64,000 nt of DNA, taken from positions 1,116,001 to 1,180,000 of the forward strand of contig NZ_OZ032152.1 in the NCBI RefSeq assembly GCF_964026455.1, read 5' to 3'. Shown piece after piece: positions 8,806-63,520 of the stretch. Both the position numbers and the translations under genes were made by a program. The notes under the pieces were generated by a model. It did no database searches. It was not told the DNA's origin and worked only from the letters and a program-made list of their open reading frames with translations. Positions within the stretch are counted from its first letter, which is position 1. Each line of letters begins with the position of its first letter. Source of the DNA: Rickettsia endosymbiont of Lasioglossum villosulum (GTDB lineage: Bacteria > Pseudomonadota > Alphaproteobacteria > Rickettsiales > Rickettsiaceae).

Positions 8806-9765
8806 TTATAACCACTTTTTCTTCTTAAAATATTTATAGGTAACGGCTATAGATATGACCATTAAAAACAAGGCTATAGGGTAGCCGTAAGGCGATTGAA
8901 GCTCAGGCATCACAGTGAAATTCATGCCGTAAATACTGGCTATTAAAGTAGGTGGCAAGAAAAATATAGTCACTAATGAGAAAAGCTTAACCATATTATT
9001 CTGCTCAATAGCAATCATACCTAACGCTGCGTCTAAAGTTCTTGCAATCTCACTAGATATAAATTGTGAAAAGTTAATTATTGAATCCACATCACGAAGT
9101 AAAGTATCTAACAAATCTTTAGACGCTTTATTTTGACTTATTTGCAGAGATTTTAAGATATATTGAATAACCATAGTAAGGGAAAACAAACATTCACGAC
9201 TTTTTGAAAGTAAATCACCTTTCTGTCCTATTTTTTTTAGTATTCTTTTATGATCTATTCGTAAATCATTTAAATTATTATCAAGTATTAAACGCCCATA
9301 ATCATCAATATCCATACTAACAGATTGCACAACATTTGATAAGCCTGTTACCATATTACGAAGTAACATAAAAAACATATGCTCTGCTGTATATTTATAA
9401 TTCAACTGTTTAGCAAATTTATTAATACAATCATTGAAAGAGGTTAACTCTACATAACGAACAGTTATTAAATAAGATTTATGTAAGATAAATACTATAG
9501 AATGTGTTTCTGGAAATTTCTTCTCTTTATTAATAAGTTCTGTAATAGTTAAATATAACGCATCATTTTCCGTATATAATCTTTCTGAAATTTCAATTTG
9601 TGATATATCTTTTAATGTTGGTATATCTATATTTAATGAATTCTTTATCTCTTCTCTTTCTTCATTTGTAATATTAAATAAATCAATCCATAAAGTTGAT
9701 TCATTAACAATATACTCTTCTTTTTTTACTATAGCATTATTTTCTTTTAAATATGTGGTAATCAT
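8806..9765 (-). CDS. corA: CorA-family magnesium/cobalt transporter
   Basis: A CorA protein of about 319 residues. The long soluble N-terminal domain is followed by two C-terminal membrane helices, the first ending in the hallmark YGMN motif (GMNFTVMPELQSP...YGYP), and a basic tail KYFKKKKWL. CorA forms a pentameric inner-membrane channel for Mg2+. I chose the ATG at 9765; an in-frame TTG at 9780 would add five residues. The gene converges with rodA and sits downstream of the small structured module at 9873-10323, on the same strand. No terminator was seen between that module and corA. Confidence 0.9.
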   Translation of the reverse strand: MITTYLKENNAIVKKEEYIVNESTLWIDLFNITNEEREEIKNSLNIDIPTLKDISQIEISERLYTENDALYLTITELINKEKKFPETHSIVFILHKSYLITVRYVELTSFNDCINKFAKQLNYKYTAEHMFFMLLRNMVTGLSNVVQSVSMDIDDYGRLILDNNLNDLRIDHKRILKKIGQKGDLLSKSRECLFSLTMVIQYILKSLQISQNKASKDLLDTLLRDVDSIINFSQFISSEIARTLDAALGMIAIEQNNMVKLFSLVTIFFLPPTLIASIYGMNFTVMPELQSPYGYPIALFLMVISIAVTYKYFKKKKWL

Positions 9766-9872
9766 AACCTTAAGTAACAAATTTTATTATCAAGATTAGC
9801 AAAATTCTATTTTTAAAGCAACTTAAAGCTATTATTTATGGCTACTCTCTTCTTTTACTATAGTAAAAAATA

Positions 9873-10052
9873 TCAAAAAGTTTTGTAAAATATTCTCTCT
9901 AATTCCTCTAAACGTTGTTCTATTTTTTCAAAATTTTTTTCTGCTGTAGGATTTTCTAATAAATACGCAACTTCATCTTTTAGAATATTTACTTCTTTTT
10001 CAATGAATTCTAAAGTAATATTACGAATGTTTTTTTGATTTTGATTTGACAT
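9873..10052 (-). CDS. 59-residue charged coiled-coil microprotein (module copy A)
   Basis: ATG at 10052-10050, TGA at 9873-9875. The protein starts MSNQNQK and ends with EKIEQRLEELER, a heptad-like amphipathic helix; it is rich in Glu, Lys, Leu and Asn. A GGGAG Shine-Dalgarno lies eight bases before the ATG. A homologous gene of identical length is at 61077-61256, with 37 of 59 residues the same by my alignment (EKEVN, AYLLENP and IEQRLEELE are shared). Both follow a structured leader and the same kind of promoter. I do not recognise the family. It is conserved as protein: many codon differences between copies leave the helix intact. Confidence 0.7.
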   Translation of the reverse strand: MSNQNQKNIRNITLEFIEKEVNILKDEVAYLLENPTAEKNFEKIEQRLEELERIFYKTF

Positions 10053-10289
10053 TTGATGGACTCCCGATTAATAAACCACCAACGAATAAACCTTTGGTGG
10101 CCGGGGAGTTAGCAAAACCGTAACGACAGTTTACAATAGCCTTTAGGTTTAAAGTATACACTTTAAACCCTGGACATAGCTATTGACACCCCGACCGTAA
10201 TAAAGCCGAGGATAGTATCATTTAATGGTAGATACCCACCACGTTACAAGAGATTGCTAAATCCCAAAATAGCCTTATAGCTATTTCAA
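10053..10289 (-). promoter_or_regulatory. Structured leader of microprotein module (copy A)
   Basis: Predicted 5' leader of about 237 nt, read on the minus strand. Paired elements: CCCCGACC (10189-10196) with GGCCGGGG (10099-10106); GCTATTG (10179-10185) with CAATAGC (10134-10140); ACTTTAAACC (10160-10169) with GGTTTAAAGT (10146-10155); CCACCAA (10076-10082) with TTGGTGG (10094-10100). Copy B keeps all of these with compensatory changes. The Shine-Dalgarno (10061-10065) can also pair with the CCCC strand of the large stem, suggesting a switch. Structure is well supported; the regulatory role is inference. Confidence 0.65.
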
Positions 10290-10295
10290 TTACAA

Positions 10296-10323
10296 TTTAT
10301 ACTTAACTCCTTAAAAAAGTCAA
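10296..10323 (-). promoter_or_regulatory. Promoter of module copy A
   Basis: On the minus strand, TTGACT (10323-10318) is followed after 16 bp by TATAAA (10301-10296). Copy B has TTGACT-N16-TAGAAT at the matching place. Transcription would begin near 10289, giving a leader of about 237 nt. Confidence 0.65.
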
Positions 10324-10464: not shown

Positions 10465-11316
10465 ATGAATAATAACGATGAACTTAATAAGTTAGTAGCT
10501 TTTAAAGATAAAAATATTAGAAGAATTTTACATAATAACGAATGGTGGTTTTCTGTAATTGATGTAGTGGGAGCATTAACTGATAGTGCTGATGCCGGTG
10601 CATATTGGCGTAAGCTTAAACAGAGGCTAATTGAAGAAAAAAGCGAAGTCGTGACATTTTGTCACGAGTTGAAATTGAAAGCACCTGATGGCAAAATGAG
10701 GCTAACAGATTGTGCAAATACCGAATCATTACTGCGTATTATACAATCTATTCCTTCGCCAAAAGCAGAACCATTCAAAAGATGGCTTGCTAAAGTAGGT
10801 TACGAAAGAATTCAAGAGATCTCTGATCCAGAAAAATCTGTTGATAGAGCGAGGGAAAATTGGAAACGACATGGTCGTAGTGAAAAGTGGATTCAGCAAC
10901 GTATGATGGGTCAGGAAACACGTAACAAATTAACTGATTACTGGAAAAATCATGAGGTAACAAAAGAGAATGAATTTGCAATATTAACTAATATTATTCA
11001 TCAAGAGTGGGCAGATATAAGTGTTAAAGAGCATAAGAATATAAAAAGTTTAAAAAATCAAAATTTACGTGATCACATGAATGAGGCAGAATTAATTTTT
11101 ACTGCTCTTGCTGAGTTATCTACCCGTCAAATAGCCGAATCTAATAATGCAACAGGGATGGAAGAAAATAAGGCTGCAAGTAAGATAGGTGGAGGTATAG
11201 CTAAAAACGCTAGAGTTGCTTTGGAAAATAAAACCGGTAAGAAAGTGATTTCAACAGAAAACTATTTATTACCTGAAAGCAAAAAAATGAAAGAGCTTAG
11301 TTCACAAGACAAATAA
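10465..11316 (+). CDS. DinD-like / BRO-N domain protein
   Basis: A 283-residue protein. The N-terminal 100 residues form a BRO-N (Bro/ANT phage-type) domain (IRRILHNNEWWFSVIDVVGALTDSADAGAYWRKLKQRL), and the rest matches DNA-damage-inducible protein D: SPKAEPFKRWLAKVGYERIQEI, then the GRSEKWIQQRMMGQETRNKLTDYWKNH and EWADISVKEHK segments, and a C-terminal KNARVALENKTGKKVISTENYL. DinD of E. coli is SOS-induced and inhibits RecA strand exchange. Whether this copy is SOS-regulated is unknown: I saw no clear LexA-type box. BRO-N proteins travel with phages and mobile DNA, which fits the MITE just downstream. Confidence 0.8.
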   Translation: MNNNDELNKLVAFKDKNIRRILHNNEWWFSVIDVVGALTDSADAGAYWRKLKQRLIEEKSEVVTFCHELKLKAPDGKMRLTDCANTESLLRIIQSIPSPKAEPFKRWLAKVGYERIQEISDPEKSVDRARENWKRHGRSEKWIQQRMMGQETRNKLTDYWKNHEVTKENEFAILTNIIHQEWADISVKEHKNIKSLKNQNLRDHMNEAELIFTALAELSTRQIAESNNATGMEENKAASKIGGGIAKNARVALENKTGKKVISTENYLLPESKKMKELSSQDK

Positions 11317-61076: not shown

Positions 61077-61256
61077 CTATACAACACTATAAAGCATTTT
61101 TTCAAGTTCCTCTAAACGTTGTTCTATTCTTTCAATATCTTTTTCTGTTGCGGGGTTTTCTAATAAATATGCAATTTCGTCTCTTAGCTTATTTACTTCT
61201 TTTTCAGTAAAGTCTAATACGATCTCATAAGTAGATTTTCTGTTTTGATTTGACAT
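61077..61256 (-). CDS. 59-residue charged coiled-coil microprotein (module copy B)
   Basis: ATG at 61256-61254, TAG at 61079-61077. Exactly as long as copy A at 9873-10052: both start MSNQN, share EKEVN, AYLLENP and IEQRLEELE, and differ mostly at other positions (37 of 59 identical). A GGGAG ribosome site is at the same spacing. It is preceded by the same promoter-leader arrangement. No known domain is recognised; the helix has a heptad-like Leu/Ile/Glu pattern. Conservation of length, start and helix between diverged copies argues for translation. Confidence 0.7.
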   Translation of the reverse strand: MSNQNRKSTYEIVLDFTEKEVNKLRDEIAYLLENPATEKDIERIEQRLEELEKMLYSVV

Positions 61257-61492
61257 TTGATGACTCCCGATTAATTAAAACCACCAAACTATATAATTTT
61301 GGTGGTCGGGGCGTTCAAAAAACTGCCTAAGATCAGTCATAATAGCTTTTAGGTTTAAGGTTTACACCTTAAACCTTGAACATGACTATTATCACCCCGA
61401 CCATAGAAGCCGAGGTTTGTATCATTTTATGGTTGATACTGTCCATCTTAAGTTTGGATTTTTGAAGTCCCAGAATAGCATTAACTATTCCG
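61257..61492 (-). promoter_or_regulatory. Structured leader of microprotein module (copy B)
   Basis: Read on the minus strand, about 236 nt. Pairs: CCCCGACC (61395-61402) with GGTCGGGG (61304-61311); CTATTAT (61386-61392) with ATAATAG (61339-61345); ACCTTAAACC (61366-61375) with GGTTTAAGGT (61352-61361); CCACCAAA (61281-61288) with TTTGGTGG (61298-61305). Compared with copy A, A-T to G-C and C-G to T-A changes occur on both sides of the same stems. The SD (61264-61268) and part of the CCCCGA strand are again complementary. Confidence 0.65.
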
Positions 61493-61498
61493 GTTACG

Positions 61499-61526
61499 AT
61501 TCTATATATGACTATTAAAAAGTCAA
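61499..61526 (-). promoter_or_regulatory. Promoter of module copy B
   Basis: On the minus strand, TTGACT (61526-61521), 16 bp, TAGAAT (61504-61499). The same -35 hexamer and spacing are found in copy A, giving a predicted start near 61492. Confidence 0.65.
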
Positions 61527-61644
61527 TAAGTTTATAGGTTGAATGTAATTTCTGCTTCTGTCATACTGTGGCTTGGGAACTAGGTTGTTGCACCCTTTAT
61601 GTCATTCCTGCGTGAGGCTTTGCCTGCGTGGATCATTTTCTCCT

Positions 61645-61743
61645 GTCATCCCGTGGCTTGTCCACGGTATCCAGAAAAACAACTTTTAATACTAATAATT
61701 TTAGTATTTTAAGCTGGATCCCGCGATCAAGTCACGGGATGAC
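61645..61743. repeat. Palindromic repeat, GTCATCCCG family
   Basis: GTCATCCCGTGGCTTGTCCA on the left, the inner hairpin AATACTAATAATTTTAGTATT, and GGATCCCGCGATCAAGTCACGGGATGAC on the right. It ends 5 bp from the stop of the ABC transporter gene and may act as its terminator. Other repeat phrases (GCGTGAGGCTTTGCCTGCGTGG) lie just upstream. Confidence 0.85.
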
Positions 61744-61747
61744 AGTA

Positions 61748-63520
61748 TTAGTTATTATTTAGCTCTTCTTCCTGCTGTTTATACCATAGTTCTGCATAAT
61801 AGCCTTTTTGTTTCAGCAAGGTTTTATGGTTGCCACGCTCGACTATATAGCCATTATCTAAAACAATAATCTCATCAGCGTCGATTATTGTTGATAAACG
61901 ATGAGCAATAATTAAGGTGGTATAATGCTCTGATATTTCTTTAAGACTTGCCTGAATTAGCTTTTCAGTTTTAGTATCAAGTGAGCTTGTTGCTTCATCA
62001 AACACATATATAGATGGATTTTTGAGTAACGTCCTTGCTATGGCAATGCGTTGTTTCTCGCCGCCTGAAAGCTTTAAACCACGCTCACCTACTTGGGTTT
62101 CATACCCCTCCGGCAGGCTAGTAATAAACTCATGAATATGGGCGTTCTTTGAAGCAGCTATAACCTCATCATAGCTAGCCGAATTATCACCATAAGCGAT
62201 ATTGTAATATATCGTATCATTGAACAAGACAGTATCTTGCGGTACGATTCCAATAGCTTTGCGAAGCGAGCTTTGCGTGACCTTTCTTATGTCCTGCCCG
62301 TCTATAGTAATACTGCCACTATTAATATCATAAAACCTAAAAAGCAAACGTGAGATGGTTGACTTACCGGCCCCGCTACTCCCGACTATCGCAAGCGTCT
62401 TACCACTATCTATAGTAAAGCTGATATTATGTAAAATTGGACGTTCTTGATTATAAGCAAAATTCACCTCTTTAAAAGCGACTTCGCCTTTTAATATAGT
62501 AAGCTCTTTAGCGTCTTTAGCATCCTCTACTTCTTCTGGTATGTCTAAAAGATTAAACATATCCTCCATACCAACTAAGGCATTCTTAATTTCCCTATAA
62601 GCAAATCCAAGTATTGAAAGTGGGATTGATAGCTGGAAAAGATAAGTATTAACCATGATTAAATCGCCGACAGTCATTTTACCTTGATTTATTTTAGTCG
62701 CCGATAGTATCATAAGAGCGACAAGCCCAAGGGATATTATAACATCCTGCCCTATATTTAAAATGGATAGGCTATTAGTTGTCTTCGTTGCTGATTTTTC
62801 ATAAATTTGTAGTGCCTCATTAAATTTAGAGGCTTCATATTCCTCATTACTAAAATATTTAACAGTCTCAAAATTCAGCAGGCTATCGATTGCCCTATTA
62901 TTTGCGGTATTGTCGCTTTGATTCATCTCTCGTGCAAACGAAATCCGCCAGGTACTAATTAGAAAAGTGTACAGAACGTAAATTGACATGGTTACTAAAA
63001 TAGTGAAAGAAAACCAAATGCCATATACATACCATAATATCCCGCTTACAAGTATGATTTCTACACTTGTCGGAAGAATATTAAATAGTGAATAACGCAG
63101 CACCGCTTCTATGCCTTTAGTGCCACGCTCTATTGACCTACTTAAGCCGCCGGTTTTTCGTGTAATATGAAAACGCATGCTTAAATTATGCATATGTTTA
63201 AAGACATTAAGAGCAATAAGCCTAGTTGCCTGATGCCCTACTTTAGAGAAAATAATATTGCGTAACTCATTAAATATCTGAACAAATATTTTAGTCCCAC
63301 CATATACCATAATCATGCCGATAATAACCGAAATGGCTAGATTTTTATTCAAGCCATCTATTACGTATTTATAAACTATTGGTACGAAAATATTTATTAC
63401 TTTAGCAAGCAACAAACAAATAAGCGAAGTAACAATCCGCAAGCGTATGTTAAACTCTTTCGACCATAAATAAGGCAGAAGTGAATAGAATGAATTTTTA
63501 TGTTGATTTTGATTAGGCAT
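61748..63520 (-). CDS. Atm1/ABCB7-type ABC exporter, half transporter
   Basis: About 590 residues from the ATG at 63520 (MPNQNQHKN); an upstream ATG at 63562 would add 14 residues coded by repeat-like sequence. A six-helix membrane domain is followed by the nucleotide-binding domain: Walker A GSSGAGKSTIS, signature LSGGEKQRIAIAR, Walker B IYVFDEATSSLDT, and the H-loop IAHRLSTI. The FAREMNQSDNTANNRAIDSLLNFETVKYFSNE stretch is the hallmark I recall of Atm1/ABCB7, which exports glutathione-type sulfur species for Fe-S maturation, more than of MsbA. It is a homodimer at the inner membrane. Confidence 0.85.
   Translation of the reverse strand: MPNQNQHKNSFYSLLPYLWSKEFNIRLRIVTSLICLLLAKVINIFVPIVYKYVIDGLNKNLAISVIIGMIMVYGGTKIFVQIFNELRNIIFSKVGHQATRLIALNVFKHMHNLSMRFHITRKTGGLSRSIERGTKGIEAVLRYSLFNILPTSVEIILVSGILWYVYGIWFSFTILVTMSIYVLYTFLISTWRISFAREMNQSDNTANNRAIDSLLNFETVKYFSNEEYEASKFNEALQIYEKSATKTTNSLSILNIGQDVIISLGLVALMILSATKINQGKMTVGDLIMVNTYLFQLSIPLSILGFAYREIKNALVGMEDMFNLLDIPEEVEDAKDAKELTILKGEVAFKEVNFAYNQERPILHNISFTIDSGKTLAIVGSSGAGKSTISRLLFRFYDINSGSITIDGQDIRKVTQSSLRKAIGIVPQDTVLFNDTIYYNIAYGDNSASYDEVIAASKNAHIHEFITSLPEGYETQVGERGLKLSGGEKQRIAIARTLLKNPSIYVFDEATSSLDTKTEKLIQASLKEISEHYTTLIIAHRLSTIIDADEIIVLDNGYIVERGNHKTLLKQKGYYAELWYKQQEEELNNN

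What the first reader, a model, noticed from the sequence alone, without database searches (positions are those of the whole stretch)
9873..10323. Two-copy module: promoter, covarying leader RNA and 59-residue microprotein (copy A)
A self-contained transcription unit (TTGACT-N16-TATAAA, a leader of about 237 nt, a GGGAG site and a 59-codon gene) recurs at 61077-61526. Stems are kept with changes on both sides: GGTTTAAAGT/ACTTTAAACC in A versus GGTTTAAGGT/ACCTTAAACC in B, and CAATAG/CTATTG versus TAATAG/CTATTA. That is what selection on RNA structure would leave. I know of no named rickettsial RNA or protein family of this kind.
Basis: partly seen in the sequence, partly recalled or inferred. 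Interest (0 to 1): 0.8.

Follow-up and report, generated by a model that had tools for sequence, protein, structure and literature searches.

The report
Phage-derived antisense leader RNA in Rickettsia
A structured RNA in front of a tiny Rickettsia protein turns out to be one of many copies of an order-wide relative of a phage antisense RNA (the C4 and sRNA-Xcc1 type), whose copies carry their own pairs of matching recognition segments.

Summary
The window's genome has 11 model hits; 21 of 22 genomes of the genus and 12 of 36 others of the order have it. Wider alignments show strong covariation, pseudoknots included. Two of eight distant members given match Rfam sRNA-Xcc1, below its gathering score; a core-only model in turn finds 7 of 30 sRNA-Xcc1 loci. 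The layout is that of the phage P1 C4 region: 5' target mimic (a1/b1), antisense core (b'/a'), small open reading frame. In the order, a1/b1 match their own core far better than swapped partners; among nine copies of this genome this holds for 8, the exception being copy A. Unlike C4, the core does not pair with its own ribosome-binding site. A Bro-N phage-regulator gene lies within 400 nt of a leader at 18 of 29 Bro-N loci of the genus; 0.18 expected. The 59-residue protein has no known family. Verdict: a new Rickettsiales variant of a known RNA kind, probably of prophage origin; its target after loss of the ribosome-binding-site boxes is unknown.

The parts
10296..10323 (-). copy A promoter-like pair TTGACT-N16-TATAAA
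   Evidence: sequence; a pair of this type upstream of 74 of 91 genus leaders, 0.3% in letter shuffles
10053..10289 (-). copy A leader RNA (start 10289 is predicted)
   Evidence: R1 model hit equals window 10069-10286 (L001 1697-1914); fold z -5.5
10242..10260 (-). copy A a1/b1 segment (UUAGCAA..GUAACG), 5' mimic that pairs with the core
   Evidence: both boxes exactly complementary to the core; minimum-energy fold pairs it with the core; family-wide swap tests. In the nine-copy matrix copy A scores 8.9 with itself but 10.0 and 9.0 with two other copies' 5' segments
10096..10196 (-). copy A antisense core (sRNA-Xcc1-like): outer stem 10196-10189 with 10106-10099, inner hairpin, second hairpin
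   Evidence: core-only model R2 hit L001 1724-1824, E 4.7e-11
10109..10125 (-). copy A b'/a' antisense strand (CGUUAC..UUGCUAA)
10074..10102 (-). copy A 3' hairpin P11 (GGCCACCAA..UUGGUGGUU), overlaps the outer stem's 3' strand
   Evidence: family-wide
10061..10065 (-). copy A Shine-Dalgarno-like GGGAG
   Evidence: sequence
9873..10052 (-). 59-aa ORF, predicted helical hairpin
   Evidence: 23 proteins of the family, both window copies included; AlphaFold2 pLDDT 85.6
10465..11316 (+). Bro-N domain gene, divergent neighbour of copy A
   Evidence: PF02498 48.7 bits; genus-wide co-location
61501..61526 (-). copy B promoter-like pair TTGACT-N14-TATAGA
   Evidence: sequence
61274..61490 (-). copy B leader RNA, R1 match
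   Evidence: L003 1685-1901, 208.5 bits; fold z -7.4
61445..61466 (-). copy B a1/b1 segment
   Evidence: core of B scores 12.4 with its own 5' segment, 3.0 to 8.6 with those of the other eight copies; present in the centroid fold but not in the minimum-energy fold
61301..61402 (-). copy B antisense core
   Evidence: R2 hit L003 1712-1813, E 4.7e-13
61314..61334 (-). copy B b'/a' antisense strand
61077..61256 (-). copy B 59-aa ORF

Best explanation
The module is a Rickettsiales branch of the C4/sRNA-Xcc1 kind of phage-derived antisense leader RNA. One promoter makes a transcript with (1) a 5' domain holding two short segments a1/b1, (2) an antisense core: an outer stem around two hairpins, with b' in the second hairpin's loop and a' in the strand after it, and (3) a 3' hairpin, a ribosome-binding site and a small ORF. 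Shown by computation: the structure, the copy-specific a1/b1 to a'/b' complementarity, the kinship of the core with sRNA-Xcc1, and the link to Bro-N genes. Inferred: RNase P frees the core at the outer stem, and the core base-pairs with a1/b1 of its own or sibling transcripts, so each copy represses itself and near-identical copies in trans. Also inferred: in Rickettsiales the lost ribosome-binding-site boxes were replaced by a cis switch, in which the outer stem and the P7+P11 hairpins exclude each other and set access to the ribosome-binding site.
For: Core kinship both ways: two of eight distant members given (L063, L066) match RF02221 over its full 87 positions at 39.3 and 40.6 bits. R2, built from 27 cores outside the genus (L063 and L066 among them, none of the loci that RF02221 fetched), hits 17 of 17 genus loci given and 7 of 30 RF02221-fetched loci at E<=0.05, 3 of them at E<=1e-3, at the RF02221 spot. 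Layout as annotated for P1: putative a1 and b1, c4, a2, b2, icd, ant1. Own a1/b1 against swapped: 12.2 vs 6.3 in 36 members outside the genus, 10.7 vs 6.8 in 91 genus members, 16.7 vs 10.7 in 30 RF02221 loci; in nine copies of this genome the own pair is best in 8. Bro-N within 400 nt of a leader at 18 of 29 Bro-N loci, 15 placements divergent. Of ten ORFs after RF02221 cores that I picked for testing, 7 are Bro-N, KilA-N, P22_AR_N or Phage_pRha and one is SymE. RCCA follows the outer stem in 85 of 91 genus and 30 of 36 other members.
Against: The core does not complement its own ribosome-binding site in Rickettsiales (6.76 vs 6.82 swapped, 61 leaders; 6.88 vs 6.42, 32 leaders), a defining C4 feature. 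No C4 or sRNA-Xcc1 match on the seven Rickettsia loci given, even at E<=5. R1 hits none of 30 RF02221 loci nor P1; R2 misses 23 of the 30 at E<=0.05, and P1. In the nine-copy matrix the one row that fails is copy A itself. The RCCA hint for RNase P is found in only 9 of 30 RF02221 loci. Eleven of 29 Bro-N loci have no leader nearby, and 88 of 111 leaders no Bro-N. The promoter pair is found in only 6 of 36 members outside the genus. The 59-aa protein is not detectably like P1 Icd. No transcript, processing or repression was observed.
Confidence: 0.72

Rival explanations
1. A metabolite- or ion-sensing riboswitch controlling a regulon of small orphan genes. The R. conorii RNA-seq paper calls leaders before hypothetical genes riboswitches.
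For: Conserved positions such as AUGUNCA and UAAA, mutually exclusive outer stem and P7/P11 hairpins, leaders before many different genes, four 'riboswitches' before hypothetical genes in R. conorii (PMC5105140; section 4, section 9 part 1 and section 23 part 1 read; not shown to be this RNA).
Against: A ligand pocket should be constant, but the a/b segments differ from copy to copy and mostly match only their own partner. The core is kin to antisense-type RNAs that are followed by phage regulators. The downstream genes share no visible pathway.
Confidence: 0.13
2. A purely cis-acting leader without trans action: a1/b1:a'/b' pairing is only a scaffold of a pseudoknotted 5' UTR that protects the mRNA or sets translation, for example with temperature.
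For: Local ribosome-binding-site complementarity is absent. In copy A the minimum-energy fold contains the a1/b1 pairing together with P7 and P11; forcing the outer stem costs about 7 kcal/mol in copy A and 5 in copy B.
Against: A scaffold need not diversify its pairing code between copies. Thirty of 91 genus leaders have no ORF of 40 aa or more within 160 nt, so some copies look like stand-alone RNAs.
Confidence: 0.25
3. A dispersed selfish repeat, such as a Rickettsia palindromic element, that happens to carry a promoter and a short ORF.
For: Many copies per genome; dispersed repeats lie beside several copies.
Against: The nine copies of this genome compared differ by 11 to 41%, yet the family keeps 95% of pairs, promoters in 74 of 91 and often an ORF. 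No Rfam match over the leader.
Confidence: 0.03

Closest known systems
sRNA-Xcc1 (Rfam RF02221), integron-cassette-borne RNA of Xanthomonas, found in other Pseudomonadota
   Same: Core fold and motifs (outer stem, two hairpins); 5' segment complementary to the core; an ORF of 45 aa or more starts within 150 nt in 28 of 30 loci by a loose ORF search. In Xanthomonas cassettes it lies upstream of symE (PMC12444791, passage read).
   Different: Rickettsiales members score below Rfam's cut-off or not at all, have an extra 3' hairpin and a competing P7 hairpin, and lack complementarity to the ribosome-binding site, which 17 of 30 RF02221 loci show in the top tenth of swapped controls.
C4 antisense RNA (RF01695) with c4-a1b1 (RF03163), immI region of phage P1
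   Same: Order promoter, a1/b1, antisense RNA, small ORF, and antirepressor genes nearby. Processing by RNase P at the 5' end of the outer stem is reported for C4 (PMC5320573, passages read).
   Different: No covariance-model match to C4; no a2/b2 boxes in Rickettsiales; the Bro-N gene is divergent or convergent instead of downstream; the 59-aa ORF is not Icd-like by sequence.
Group 1 C4-like sRNAs of Acinetobacter baumannii
   Same: Many copies per genome, phage-derived, variable a' segment, apparently processed from longer transcripts (PMC5320573, passages read).
   Different: Those were recognised by an Rfam search as C4; the Rickettsiales family is not.
Rc_sR3 and Rc_sR33 of R. conorii
   Same: A 'riboswitch' and a 'trans sRNA' said to share 90% or more identity, 234 and 294 nt, with two bands for Rc_sR33 that may be primary and processed (PMC5105140; section 4, section 9 part 1, section 23 part 1 read). 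They may be members of this family.
   Different: Membership not tested: the named R. conorii genome was not available to the tools; the three copies of G007 compared are only 64-69% alike.

Membership tests
sRNA-Xcc1 (RF02221) | scores above the Rfam gathering score (53 bits) | tested here: not met
   Rickettsia loci: no hit at E<=5 (seven loci); own genome no hit; best of eight distant members 39.3 and 40.6 bits
sRNA-Xcc1 (RF02221) | same core fold, recognisable both ways by covariance models | tested here: met
   RF02221 finds L063 and L066 of eight loci; R2 finds 7 of 30 RF02221 loci at E<=0.05 and all 17 genus loci given. The full-length model R1 finds none of the 30
sRNA-Xcc1 (RF02221) | mature RNA of about 88 nt | not testable with these tools
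   88 nt by RACE in Xanthomonas (PMC2996969, passage read); no RNA data for this genome
C4 antisense RNA (RF01695) | matches the C4 covariance model | tested here: not met
   no C4 hit
C4 antisense RNA (RF01695) | 5' a1/b1 segments complementary to a'/b' of the core | tested here: met
   against swapped partners, 8 of 9 copies
C4 antisense RNA (RF01695) | a2/b2 boxes over the ribosome-binding site of the next gene | tested here: not met
   own equals swapped in Rickettsia (9 of 61 in the top tenth), barely above in other Rickettsiales (7 of 32)
C4 antisense RNA (RF01695) | processed by RNase P at the 5' end of the outer stem | not testable with these tools
   only a sequence hint: RCCA after the stem in 85 of 91 and 30 of 36, but in 9 of 30 RF02221 loci
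C4 antisense RNA (RF01695) | linked to a phage antirepressor gene | tested here: met
   Bro-N within 400 nt of a leader at 18 of 29 Bro-N loci, divergent or convergent rather than downstream
metabolite riboswitch | ligand-dependent structure or expression | not testable with these tools
   no match to any Rfam riboswitch over the leader

The most novel reading that the evidence does not exclude
Rickettsiales have turned a phage immunity RNA into a set of copy-specific, mostly distinct antisense leaders: each copy carries its own a/b code, the ribosome-binding-site target was replaced by a cis hairpin switch, and the leader was placed in front of host genes, including lipoprotein-like genes and orphan microproteins. 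C4, sRNA-Xcc1, the 'sXF' RNAs of Xylella and some R. conorii 'riboswitches' would then be one superfamily of leader-derived antisense RNAs.
Probability: 0.4. Interest if true: 0.8.

Novelty: new variant of a known kind. Interest (0 to 1): 0.62.

Why it matters
Rickettsiales have reduced genomes and, as far as I recall, few described RNA regulators. An RNA family with up to 12 model hits per genome that Rfam does not list, with promoter-like sequences of its own in the genus and a link to phage regulators, could be one of their largest regulatory RNA families. It would give a testable reading to R. conorii transcripts now called riboswitches or trans sRNAs. It also ties sRNA-Xcc1, filed as a trans-acting sRNA, to a leader-derived antisense layout acting on the next gene. 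In the PMC library searched, no paper holds both 'Rickettsia' and 'C4 antisense', and the only one with both 'sRNA-Xcc1' and 'C4 antisense' lists them as separate annotations in the passages I saw.

Tried and rejected
Rfam at gathering score on the window and at E<=5 on seven leader loci: no match over the leader. Complementarity of the core to the ribosome-binding site in Rickettsia: none. A trans target of copy A's core in its own genome: the two-box pattern is found at its own two sites and once more at 1136-1157; the reversed control pattern gives 2 hits, so the extra site means nothing. Resolvase-like fold for the 150-aa family, suggested by eye: the model of a close relative (P0024) has mean pLDDT 60 and no PDB match at E<=0.001, so dropped. 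Weaker forms of the complementarity test on the 30 RF02221 loci: by duplex energy, 5' own -31.4 against -24.2 (best of all partners in 14 of 30), 3' own -20.6 against -17.8 (1 of 30); by longest exact match, 5' 8.83 against 5.90 (13 of 30 beat at least 95% of the others), 3' 6.93 against 5.34 (10 of 30), direct repeat 5' to 3' 6.77 against 5.85 (4 of 30). Local alignment with gaps allows for two boxes and was used in the report. Pattern scans: genome contigs gave one alphaproteobacterial contig, viral contigs none. Plasmids and phages: no match.

Rows dropped before counts: A3 holds 28 of 34 leaders located (L002, L010, second L015, L017, L026 and L027 left out as near copies or damaged). The 91 genus leaders are 102 model rows minus 7 weak, antisense or broken rows and 4 identical ones. 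A6 holds 27 of 36 cores. The 111 leaders are the genus hits printed, of 128 counted there. The nine copies are nine of this genome's 11 hits. The ten ORFs were picked by me from 28, several because they looked like regulators, so 8 of 10 is no estimate of a rate.

Full report
WHAT IS THERE. The finding is on the minus strand. Copy A: promoter-like pair at 10323-10296, leader from about 10289, GGGAG at 10065-10061, ORF 10052-9873 of 59 aa; copy B: ORF 61256-61077 of 59 aa with a leader of the same build. Both leaders fold far better than dinucleotide shuffles (z -5.5 and -7.4, 0 of 200 shuffles as good). The genome behind the window is one contig of 1,512,138 bases.

MORE THAN TWO COPIES. A nucleotide search of the own genome found a third complete module (L002, 89% identical), a leaderless piece of the ORF (L004) and leaders in front of other things (L005-L008). 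From 28 leaders of the genus I built covariance model R1. In 58 genomes R1 hits 33: 21 of 22 in the genus, 4 of 15 in other genera of the family, 8 of 21 in other families of the order; up to 12 hits per genome, 11 in the window's own. I call the order Rickettsiales from the genus.

STRUCTURE. On the 28 leaders, a 60-pair fold with two pseudoknots has 95.0% of cells paired and 36 pairs changed on both sides, against 18.5 in column shuffles; slid versions pair 35-52%. On 36 members from outside the genus, a fold with the outer stem has 93.7% of cells paired and 44 of 48 pairs changed on both sides, against 33.8. That alignment was fitted to R1, which holds these helices except the outer stem, so the outer stem's support (94.9% paired, 7 of 10 pairs changed on both sides) is the cleanest. 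Hairpins P7 and P11 use the same strands as the outer stem and are also kept (92.0% and 92.9%), so two mutually exclusive forms are likely. Forcing the outer stem costs about 7 kcal/mol in copy A and 5 in copy B in a nested fold, which cannot include the pseudoknot.

WHAT IT IS RELATED TO. Two distant Rickettsiales members, of eight loci given, match Rfam RF02221 sRNA-Xcc1 over its full length at 40.6 and 39.3 bits (gathering score 53). A model of the core alone (R2), built from 27 cores outside the genus, those two included, finds all 17 genus loci given, the window copies at E 4.7e-11 and 4.7e-13, and 7 of 30 RF02221 loci at E<=0.05 at the same place, the best at 4e-7; it misses the other 23 and P1. 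RF02221 itself hits 47 of 299 genomes drawn from the phylum at E<=1e-4, 35 above cut-off, none of 14 control genomes, and not the window's genome. R1 does not hit the RF02221 loci, so the link runs through the distant Rickettsiales members.

THE C4 LAYOUT. In the 30 RF02221 loci, the strand after the second hairpin of the core is complementary to a 5' segment (own 16.7, swapped 10.7, sd 2.3; 28 of 30 in the top tenth) and, more weakly, to the ribosome-binding site of the next ORF (10.1 against 7.6; 17 of 30) (weaker by two cruder measures). That is the layout annotated in phage P1: putative a1 and b1, c4, a2 and b2 over the icd ribosome-binding site, icd, ant1. Rfam finds C4, c4-a1b1 and an isrK match below cut-off there. 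Of ten ORFs that I picked after RF02221 cores, three are Bro-N, two Phage_pRha, one KilA-N, one P22_AR_N, one SymE, two unknown. C4 is reported to be processed by RNase P at the outer stem, and A. baumannii has many C4-like RNAs (PMC5320573, passages read). In Xanthomonas cassettes sRNA-Xcc1 lies upstream of symE (PMC12444791, passages read), and its size by RACE is 88 nt (PMC2996969, passages read). In the PMC library I found no paper that equates sRNA-Xcc1 with C4 or that puts C4 in Rickettsia.

RICKETTSIALES HAVE HALF OF IT. The core matches its own a1/b1: 10.68 against 6.80 swapped in 91 genus leaders (65 in the top tenth) and 12.19 against 6.30 in 36 others (32 in the top tenth). Among nine copies of the window's genome, the own 5' segment is the best partner in 8 rows (mean 10.7 against 6.1). 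The failing row is copy A: 8.9 with its own segment, 10.0 and 9.0 with two others, although both its boxes are exact. Complementarity to the own ribosome-binding site is absent in the genus (6.76 against 6.82) and marginal elsewhere (6.88 against 6.42). A 3' hairpin (P11) stands in that place.

NEIGHBOURS. The gene divergent from copy A has a Bro-N domain. In 38 genomes searched, relatives of this protein are found in 18, all of the genus. Of 29 Bro-N loci, 18 have a leader within 400 nt, 0.18 expected from uniform placement; 15 placements are divergent, 8 convergent, and in five loci a Bro-N remnant lies between two leaders of one orientation. Eleven Bro-N loci have no leader nearby, and 88 of the 111 printed leaders have no Bro-N within 400 nt. 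Of 91 genus leaders, 61 have an ORF of 40 aa or more within 160 nt: 33 of the 150-aa family, 21 of the microprotein family, 7 others. In other Rickettsiales the next ORFs are diverse; many begin with signal-peptide- or lipoprotein-like sequences (my reading by eye), and one is a serine recombinase (PF00239).

THE PROTEINS. No Pfam family above cut-off for either copy, no NCBIfam family for copy A. The model is a helical hairpin, pLDDT 85.6. The 152-aa protein has 5 relatives; the model of one (P0024) is weak (pLDDT 60) and has no significant PDB match.

HOW IT MOST LIKELY WORKS. Shown by computation: fold, copy-specific complementarity, promoter-like pairs (74 of 91 in the genus, shuffles 0.3%, but only 6 of 36 elsewhere), kinship of the core, Bro-N link. 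Inferred: processing at the outer stem (RCCA follows it in 85 of 91 and 30 of 36, but in 9 of 30 RF02221 loci) and antisense action on the a1/b1 of own and sibling transcripts, plus a cis switch between the outer stem and P7/P11. The target and the role of the microprotein are open; by analogy with P1, where icd sits between c4 and ant, it may be a regulated phage-derived small protein, but the sequences show no similarity. R. conorii RNA-seq reports two transcripts about 90% alike, one called a riboswitch before a short ORF and one a trans sRNA with two bands (PMC5105140; section 4, section 9 part 1, section 23 part 1 read); they may be members, untested.

Noticed in passing
window 61633-61756: A palindromic dispersed repeat next to copy B matches Rfam RF02625 (Wolbachia sRNA 46) on both strands, 45.5 and 36.4 bits, below the gathering score.
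   Followed up: no
L004 (G000:C1:1082771-1082901, -): A leaderless 3' part of the 59-aa ORF that a dispersed repeat cuts off.
   Followed up: no
L169 (G008:C1:539390-539602, +): A leader copy 138 nt upstream of an ORF that starts like RecA, by eye.
   Followed up: no
L056, L163, L065 and L034, L139, L154, L015, L017, L152: Two leaders in tandem, or by eye a second partial core (L065), in one locus; in L034, L139, L015, L017 and L152 a Bro-N remnant lies between.
   Followed up: partly
window 8806-9780 (-): A CorA-family transporter gene starts about 92 nt after the copy A ORF on the same strand; it is not found beside other leaders in the stretches fetched.
   Followed up: partly
L007 and L145 type copies (e.g. 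G000:C1:574614-574819, +): Leader copies without a convincing ORF; in L007 an 8-nt match to the core's complement (CACAGAAC) lies downstream; possible stand-alone RNAs.
   Followed up: partly
Xylella fastidiosa Temecula1, PMC12189769: Five sRNA-Xcc1 copies spaced about 380 nt apart (passage read), as expected if each is a leader of a small ORF unit.
   Followed up: no
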